Below, piece after piece: positions 30,610 to 33,666 of a DNA stretch of 64,000 nucleotides. A model generated the notes under the pieces. That model had not been told where the DNA came from. It did no database searches and worked only from the letters and a program-made list of their open reading frames with translations. The stretch is taken from the NCBI RefSeq assembly GCF_002899455.1, contig NZ_PPFB01000001.1:124001-188000 (forward strand). Reading direction: 5' to 3'. The number at the start of each line of letters is the position of its first letter. The stretch's first letter is position 1. The position numbers and the translations under genes were made by a program. The DNA comes from Streptomyces sp. DH-12 (lineage in GTDB: Bacteria; Actinomycetota; Actinomycetes; Streptomycetales; Streptomycetaceae).

Positions 30610-33600
30610 ATGCCGGAAGATGAGAAGGTTCTCGACTACCTGCGACGGACGACCGCGGACCTCCGGGAGACGCGCCGCCGCCTGCGCGAGGCCGAGGAAC
30701 GGCTGAGCGAACCCATCGCCGTCATCGGCATGAGCTGCCAGTACCCCGGCGGGGTCGAGACGCCCGAAGACCTCTGGCAACTGGTCGCCGAGGGCCGCGA
30801 GGGCATCTCCGACTTCCCCACCGACCGGGGCTGGGACGCCGAGGCGCTCTACGACCCCGACCCCGACCGGCCCGGCACCCTCTCCACTCTCAGGGGCGGC
30901 TTCCTCCACGACGCGGGCGAGTTCGACCCGGCCTTCTTCGGGATCTCCCCGCGCGAGGCCCTGGCCATGGACCCGCAGCAGCGCCTGCTGCTCCAGAACG
31001 CCTGGACCGCGATCGAGCGCGCCCGCATCGACCCGCACACTCTGCGCGGTACCCGCACCGGCGTCTTCGCCGGAGCGATGTACCACGACTACGCCCTCCG
31101 CATGCACGGCGCTCCGGAAGGCGTCGAGGGTTACGTGGCCACCGGCAGTGCGGCGAGCGTCGTCTCCGGCCGTGTCGCGTACACCCTCGGCCTCGAAGGC
31201 CCCGCCGTCACCGTCGACACCGCCTGCTCCTCCTCCCTGGTCGCCCTCCACCTGGCCGCCTCCGCCCTGCGGCAGGGGGAGTGCTCCCTCGCCCTGGCGG
31301 CCGGCGTGACGGTGATGTCGAACGTCGGCACCTTCATCGAGTTCAGCCGCCAGCGCGGGCTCGCCGCCGACGGCCGCTGCAAGTCCTTCGCGGGCGCCGC
31401 CGACGGGACCAGCTTCAGTGAGGGCGTCGGCGTCCTCCTGCTGGAGAAGCTCTCCGACGCCCAGCGCCACGGCCATGAGGTCCTGGCCGTGCTGCGCGGC
31501 TCGGCGGTCAACCAGGACGGTGCCAGCAGCGGCCTCACCGCCCCGAACGGTCCCTCGCAGCAGCGCGTCATCCGCCAGGCCCTGGCCTCCGCCGGGCTGG
31601 AGCCCTCCGAGGTGGATGCGGTGGAGGCGCACGGCACCGGTACGAAGCTGGGTGACCCGATCGAGGCGCAGGCGCTGCTGGCCACCTACGGACAGGACCG
31701 TGACCCGGACCGGCCGCTGTGGCTGGGCTCCCTGAAGTCGAACATCGGGCACACGCAGGCCGCCGCCGGCGTGGGCGGCGTCATCAAGATGGTCATGGCG
31801 CTGCGCCACGGCGTGCTGCCGCAGACCCTCCACGTGGATGAGCCGTCACCGCAGATCGACTGGGAGGCGGGCGAGGTCGAACTCCTGACCGAGCGCCGCC
31901 CCTGGCCCGGTACCGAAGGCCCGCGTCGCGCCGCCGTCTCCTCCTTCGGCATCAGCGGCACCAACGCCCACGCCATCTTTGAACAGGCCCCTGACCAGGT
32001 CTCCGACCAGCACCCCGAGGACCAGGCCCCGGCCACCCCGCTGCCCTTCCTCCTCGCGGCGAGAAGCGAGGAGGCTCTGCGGGAGCAGGCGGTGCGGCTT
32101 GCGGAGCATGTCGGGGAGCGGGCGGAGCTGCGCCCGGTGGATGTGGCGTTCTCGCTGGCCACGACGCGGTCGGTGTTCGAGCACCGGGCCGTGGTGGTCG
32201 GTTCCTCACGTGACGAACTGCTCGAAGCTCTGGCCGGAGTGCGAGGTGAAGGGCCGGTCGCCGGCGGTCGGCTGGCGTTGTTGTTCACGGGTCAGGGTGC
32301 GCAGCGGGTCGGGATGGGGCGGGAGCTGTATGCCGCCTATCCGGTGTTCGCGGAGGCGTTCGACGCGGTGTGTGCGCGGGTGGACGGTGGGCTGGGCCGG
32401 TCGTTGAAGACTCTCGTTTTCGAGGGTGAGGGTGCGGAGGGTGTTGGTCTGCTGGATCGGACGCGGTTCACGCAGGCGGCGTTGTTCGCGGTCGAGGTGG
32501 CGTTGTTCCGGCTGCTGGAGTCGTGGGGGGTGCGCCCGGACGCACTCCTCGGGCATTCGGTGGGGGAGATTGCGGCCGCGCATGTGGCCGGGGTGCTGGA
32601 CCTGGATGACGCGTGTGCGTTGGTGGTGGCGCGTGGTCGGTTGATGGATGCTCTGCCCGCGGGTGGGGCGATGGTGGCGGTCGAGGCGTCGGAGGACGAG
32701 GTCCGTGCGGCGCTGGTCGAGGGTGTCTCCCTCGCTGCGGTGAACGGGCCGCGTGCGGTGGTCGTCTCGGGTGCGGAGGCGGCGGTGGAGCAGGTGACCG
32801 CCGCGCTCGCCGAGCGGGGCGCGCGGGTCAAGAAGCTCACGGTCAGCCATGCGTTCCATTCGGTGTTGATGGACCCGATGCTGGAGGAGTTCCGGCAGGT
32901 CGCGGAGACGCTGACCTACGGGCCCGCTCGCATCCCCGTCGTCTCGAACCTCACCGGTGAGGTGGCGGGTCCCGAGCTTTCGACGGCCGGTTACTGGGTG
33001 CGGCACGTGCGTGAGGCGGTCCGTTTCGCCGACGGTGTGCGGACGCTCCACGACCGGGGCGTGACCCGTTTCCTCGAACTGGGGCCGGACGGTGTGCTCA
33101 CCGTCATGGCGCAGAGCACCTTGCCGGAGGCCGGGGAGGCGCTGTTCGCGCCCGTGCTGCGCAAGGACCGCGAGGAAACGTTCTCCCTGCTCACCGCACT
33201 TGGCCGCCTGCACGCGCACGGCGGCGAGGTGGACTGGGCTGCCTACTTCACCAGCATGGTCGCCGATGTCCGGCGTGTGGAGCTGCCGACGTATGCGTTC
33301 CAGCGTGAGCGGTTCTGGCCCGAGGTGGCTGGCGGGGGCGGGGGTGAGGGCTGGACGTATCAGGAGGAGTGGCGTCCGGTCTCGGTGGCGGGTGTCGCGG
33401 CGGTGAGTGGTTCGTGGCTGGGGGGGGTGGGGTCCGGGGGGGGGGGGTGGGGTCGGGGGGCTGCTGGTGGGGTGGGGGGGCGGGGGGGTCGGGGGGTGGG
33501 GGGGGTGGGGGGGGGGGGGGGGGGGGGGGGTGGGGGGGGGGGGGGTGGGGTGGGGGGGTGTGGGTGGGGGGGGGGTGGGGGGGGTGGCCGGTCAGGGGGT

Positions 33601-33666
33601 GGGGGGGGTGGGGTTGGTGAGTCGTCGGGGGGTGGGGGCTCCGGGGGCTGTGGAGTTGCGGGATGA
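30610..33666 (+). CDS. Giant five-module PKS, 5' part (docking-KS-AT-damaged KR)
   Basis: The start is ATG 30610, behind GGAGG. The N-terminus [20 protein letters not shown] is a docking helix, and the KS begins at residue 34. The KS cysteine is at residue 206 (31225) and the AT serine in [11 protein letters not shown] at residue 650 (32557), with HAFH, so malonyl. After the post-AT linker ([11 protein letters not shown], then [12 protein letters not shown]) the sequence enters the poly-G region at about 33402. It runs on as Gly/Trp-rich nonsense to a chance stop at 33664-33666, 1018 residues as read. It is best regarded as the front of one gene ending at 55681. Adding back about 455 bp by comparison with module 3B gives a subunit of about 8508 residues with five modules. 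It should take the chain from the subunit ending at 30567. Confidence 0.88.

What the first reader, a model, noticed from the sequence alone, without database searches (positions are those of the whole stretch)
33402..33637. Poly-G corruption and a 455-bp collapse inside a repeated KR cassette
Aligned by eye with the intact copy starting at 23281, almost every difference is X to G, with surviving bases still in register on both sides. The distance between fixed landmarks is 210 bp instead of 665 bp. Two-colour sequencers read no signal as G, and this segment lies in a ~2 kb repeat, so a base-calling and assembly failure is the natural explanation. The missing 455 bp (2 modulo 3) rejoin frame 30610 to frame 55681 exactly. 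Any record splitting this gene, or treating the glycine-rich ends as protein, is wrong.
Basis: partly seen in the sequence, partly recalled or inferred. Interest (0 to 1): 0.75.

Follow-up and report, generated by a model that had tools for sequence, protein, structure and literature searches.

The report
Sequencing scar in a polyketide gene
A 230-base stretch of almost pure G that breaks a giant polyketide-synthase gene in an actinobacterial genome is best read as a sequencing and assembly error inside a repeated segment, not as real DNA.

Summary
At 33403-33632 a ketoreductase (KR) segment of a modular polyketide synthase, intact elsewhere in the same genome, is replaced by G-rich sequence. 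On the left 21 of 21 differences from copy A are X to G, 0 of 56 Gs changed, and 17 of 17 non-G letters (33422-33505) are in register. On the right 16 of 18 differences from the nearest copy are X to G. The stretch is 455 bp shorter than copy A and splits one gene.

I judge it an artefact (0.95): X-to-G miscalls in reads of the G-rich strand, plus a collapse where an assembly or gap-filling step joined two G-rich ends in a repeat. Bases after GG changed more often (22 of 31 versus 17 of 52, P 0.0013; significant on the left edge, not on the right alone), with no effect of GG after the base. Both edges share one polarity, so a read fading into dark cycles cannot be the whole story. The figure 455 depends on the copy taken as model (419 to 491, each 2 modulo 3). 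In a survey 86 of 246 same-genus assemblies hold G-rich runs; 21 of 30 sampled loci lie at contig ends or N gaps.

The parts
33403..33632 (+). G-rich scar of 230 bp standing where intact copies have 647 to 721 bp, including the start of the KR domain with its Rossmann motif (motif recalled)
33403..33505 (+). left in-register stretch, 21 of 21 differences X to G
33506..33552 (+). core, G runs of 24 and 14, register not recoverable
33553..33632 (+). right in-register stretch, 16 of 18 differences X to G against the copy at 8914
30601..33666 (+). upstream open frame of the split PKS gene: docking, KS, AT, then a false glycine-rich tail
33407..55681 (+). downstream open frame of the same gene, 7424 aa: false glycine-rich start, partial KR (profile 8-179 of 180), ACP, then further PKS modules
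22754..24588 (+). intact copy A, identical to copy B over 528 bp left and 622 bp right of the scar
8232..8993 (+). intact KR copy M1 (stretch compared here; nearest to the right edge)
12826..13480 (+). intact KR copy M2

Best explanation
The segment as printed is not real DNA; the genome most likely carries an intact KR here. Short reads of the G-rich (+) strand were miscalled X to G, more often after GG, in a stretch where near-identical repeat copies keep reads from being placed. A de Bruijn, gap-filling or polishing step then joined the left and right G-rich ends across poly-G and dropped 419 to 491 bp (455 if copy A is the model). The result is a false break of frame in one very large PKS gene. 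Shown: the in-register X-to-G pattern, its single polarity, the excess after GG, the loss of length, the repeat setting, and the position of most sampled G-rich runs of other assemblies at contig ends or gaps. Inferred: the platform, the software step, the intact state of the real gene.
For: In-register X to G with no G lost on either side. A gapless comparison suffices within each edge, which speaks against insertion-deletion type machines (general knowledge). Changes follow GG in 22 of 31 sites against 17 of 52 others (P 0.0013) and show no link with GG after the base, 14 of 30 against 25 of 53 (P 1.0), as for reads that run along the + strand; PMC3295828 reports GGT called GGG, and a case with all calls of one direction wrong (passages). 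The 528 and 622 bp next to the scar are unchanged. The lost length is 2 modulo 3 against each of four intact copies, as needed to rejoin the two frames, and both frames code for PKS domains. By exact G14 and by G32 with 3 mismatches it is the only G/T-mixed place found in the 7.6 Mb genome; the four other G14 places are plain runs. In 246 same-genus assemblies, this one included, 86 have G30-like runs; of the 30 loci returned 13 lie at a contig end and 8 at an N gap.
Against: No reads, qualities or platform record were available. The scar lies inside a 7.4 Mb contig and the window has no N. The GG effect is significant on the left (13 of 18 against 8 of 29, P 0.006) but not on the right alone (9 of 13 against 9 of 23, P 0.16), and 17 of the 39 changes do not follow GG. 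Two right-edge changes are C to T, not to G. Nine of the 30 sampled runs are internal and unexplained. No strain with the same cluster was found: best-scoring other hit 77% identity among 294 same-genus genomes with one or two candidates scored per genome and a capped listing, 73% among 40 relatives, 24 of them also, and 27 to 59% best-segment protein identity over 61 loci of genome contigs.
Confidence: 0.95

Rival explanations
1. A sub-case of the best explanation: the miscalls come only from two-colour dark cycles, no signal being called G, with poly-G junk reads bridging the gap.
For: A, C and T all go to G; poly-G core; two-channel machines leave G unlabelled (PMC11140927, passages seen).
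Against: Signal should not come back along a read, yet the right edge recovers in the same direction; changes are commoner after GG. Of 13 contig-end runs in other assemblies 3 point outward, 8 inward and 2 are mixed (my reading; small numbers), not the outward excess that fading reads would give.
Confidence: 0.35
2. Real DNA: a true deletion with G-rich replacement that inactivated this KR and split the gene.
For: The sequence stands in the assembly, inside a near-chromosome contig.
Against: I know of no mutational process that turns A, C and T all to G and spares each G over 100 bp in register; the flanks are unchanged; downstream a 7424-aa frame stays open and holds PKS domains along its length.
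Confidence: 0.02
3. Natural growth of a G tract by slippage in a G-rich stretch.
For: Plain G runs of 14 to 27 occur at four other places in this genome.
Against: Those are single clean runs; here the surviving letters stay in register with intact copies, so bases were substituted, not inserted.
Confidence: 0.01

Closest known systems
Strand-specific systematic Illumina error at GG contexts, GGT called GGG (PMC3295828)
   Same: Bases after GG called G, with a single polarity
   Different: There, single sites in reads; here a continuous stretch in an assembled contig with a collapse, and 17 of 39 changes not after GG
Two-channel poly-G artefact reads
   Same: Poly-G core; nearly all changes to G
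   Different: The right edge recovers in the same direction; platform unknown
Misassembly of repetitive modular PKS genes (PMC4849082, passages seen)
   Same: Near-identical modules, lost segment, split gene
   Different: A plain collapse would leave a clean join (general knowledge), not X-to-G substitution

Membership tests
Strand-specific GG-context base-call error | the wrong call is G | tested here: met
   37 of 39 changes go to G: 21 of 21 left, 16 of 18 right
Strand-specific GG-context base-call error | the wrong call is preceded by GG | tested here: inconclusive
   enriched when pooled, 22 of 31 against 17 of 52, but not significant on the right alone and 17 of 39 changes do not follow GG
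Strand-specific GG-context base-call error | seen in reads of one strand only | not testable with these tools
   no reads available
[quoted passage not shown]
   no platform record, reads or qualities
Assembly collapse in a repeat | lies in near-identical repeats and is shorter than the other copies | tested here: met
Type I modular PKS KR domain | KR profile matched from its start in the frame of the gene | tested here: not met
   as printed, copy B matches positions 8-179 of 180 in another frame than the upstream part, which has no hit; copy A matches 1-179

The most novel reading that the evidence does not exclude
The scar is real: a targeted, G-only hypermutation with deletion has silenced one KR copy of a repeated PKS cassette.
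Probability: 0.02. Interest if true: 0.85.

Novelty: not a real feature. Interest (0 to 1): 0.18.

Why it matters
This gene should not be annotated as two proteins or as having glycine-rich ends, and no chemical prediction (an inactive KR) should be drawn from it. More widely, G-rich runs occur in 86 of 246 same-genus assemblies, and 21 of the 30 loci inspected sit at contig ends or gaps, so such runs may be a cheap flag for doubtful spots when gene clusters are mined.

Tried and rejected
Searches for an intact relative of the same cluster found none (limits under evidence against; one search says that records of the window's own or a very near genome may be left out). The four other G14 places of this genome were read with 240 bases on either side: plain runs. 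A first self-BLAST of the window missed pairs and was repeated in pieces. Slippage was rejected on the register. The pure fading-read form was marked down, not rejected. Contexts tested: G or GG before and G or GG after, so a P of 0.0013 is the best of four pooled tests (per edge).

Paper searches on poly-G in assemblies: 6 of 6 listed; 15 of 18; 1 of 1; 10 of 29; no listed title treats poly-G scars in bacterial assemblies. I saw passages of PMC3295828, PMC11140927, PMC4849082 and PMC5793790 (its poly-G mention is a reference title); for the rest listings only. This is not proof that none is in print.

Full report
What is there. The window is bases 124001-188000 of a 7,418,681-base contig in a 7.6 Mb, 13-contig genome. 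The stretches of the + strand scanned with Pfam (14870-30564, 30601-42406, 42407-55678, 55579-63998) hold modular PKS domains. A KR cassette recurs: matches over nearly all of copy A's damaged-equivalent stretch lie at C1:147282 (copy A itself), 120192, 132273 and 136826, two partial ones at 89029 and 98854, and the damaged copy B at 157404.

Check of the observation. Copies A and B are identical for 528 bp up to 33402 and for 622 bp from 33633, at offsets that differ by 455 bp. On the left 21 of 21 differences are X to G and none of 56 Gs is changed; on the right, against the nearest copy M1, 16 of 18 are X to G, 2 are C to T, and none of 44 Gs is changed. Between undamaged repeat copies of the window 128 of 284 changes at non-G bases go to G. 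Surviving letters are in register: 17 of 17 and 18 of 20, against maxima of 10 and 11 in 20,000 shuffles each. In blocks of 16 bases the share of non-G bases read as G climbs unevenly from 1 of 9 at 33403 to 7 of 8 at 33499, and on the right falls from 3 of 6 at 33553 and 4 of 5 at 33569 to 1 of 7 at 33617 and 0 of 6 at 33633. The core of 47 bases cannot be placed.

What the context says. Over 83 non-G sites of both edges (left judged on copy A, right on M1) the base changed in 22 of 31 cases after GG and in 17 of 52 others, P 0.0013; with GG after the base 14 of 30 and 25 of 53, P 1.0; with one G before P 0.006, with one G after P 0.38. Taken apart, the left edge gives P 0.006 and the right P 0.16, so the right adds a trend only. 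The pooled asymmetry is what reads running along the + strand would give. PMC3295828 (passages) describes Illumina errors mostly preceded by G, typically GGT called GGG, and a case with all calls of one direction wrong. Both edges here have the same polarity. One read that fades into darkness, or two reads fading towards each other, do not explain that: the second would give X to C on the right.

Length and frame. The loss is 455 bp on copy A, 419 on the copy at 12843, 491 on that at 8292 and about 473 on C1:120192 (match length); each is 2 modulo 3. On any of these models the frame from 30601 and the frame that ends at 55681 are one gene. As printed, the downstream frame matches the KR profile from position 8 only, and the upstream part has no KR hit.

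Survey. G30 with up to 2 mismatches occurs in 86 of 246 same-genus genomes, this one included; counts of overlapping matches run from 1 to 3916, and five genomes pass 1000 (strands summed by me). The tool returned 30 loci, its best matches; the part of the listing shown has one locus a genome. In 13 a run of 16 or more lies within 150 bp of a contig end, in 8 within 100 bp of an N, and 9 are internal. Random places would seldom do so (inference, no control run). One internal locus, L144, is T-interrupted like the scar here; the other internal ones were not explained.

A second lesion. The gene upstream is split too: a 14-bp tandem duplication at 27536-27563 shifts the frame after the last AT of the open frame 14870-27847, while DH, KR and ACP follow in the frame 27664-30567; three homologous segments of the window lack it. 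It may be a further assembly error in this repeated cluster or a real mutation.

Verdict. Artefact, 0.95; dark two-colour signal as the only source of the miscalls, 0.35. Not a biological feature; of use as a warning.

Noticed in passing
window 27536-27563: Exact 14-bp tandem duplication that breaks the frame of the upstream PKS gene (open frames 14870-27847 and 27664-30567) between AT and DH; absent from three homologous segments near 17.8, 53.4 and 63.7 kb.
   Followed up: partly
86 of 246 same-genus genomes; L116-L145: G-rich runs are common in these assemblies; of 30 sampled loci 21 lie at contig ends or N gaps, and five genomes hold over a thousand overlapping matches.
   Followed up: partly
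L117, L118, L129: In 3 of 30 sampled loci the G run lies within 31 bp of a GTCGCGCNGTTCCCCGCGCCC element, which was not found in 1.25 Mb of the other loci held (largely PKS regions, so a weak control).
   Followed up: partly
G000:C1:1360813-1360839 (L031): Plain 27-nt G run on the - strand; it crosses an open frame on that strand that looks regulator-like to me (no family search made).
   Followed up: no
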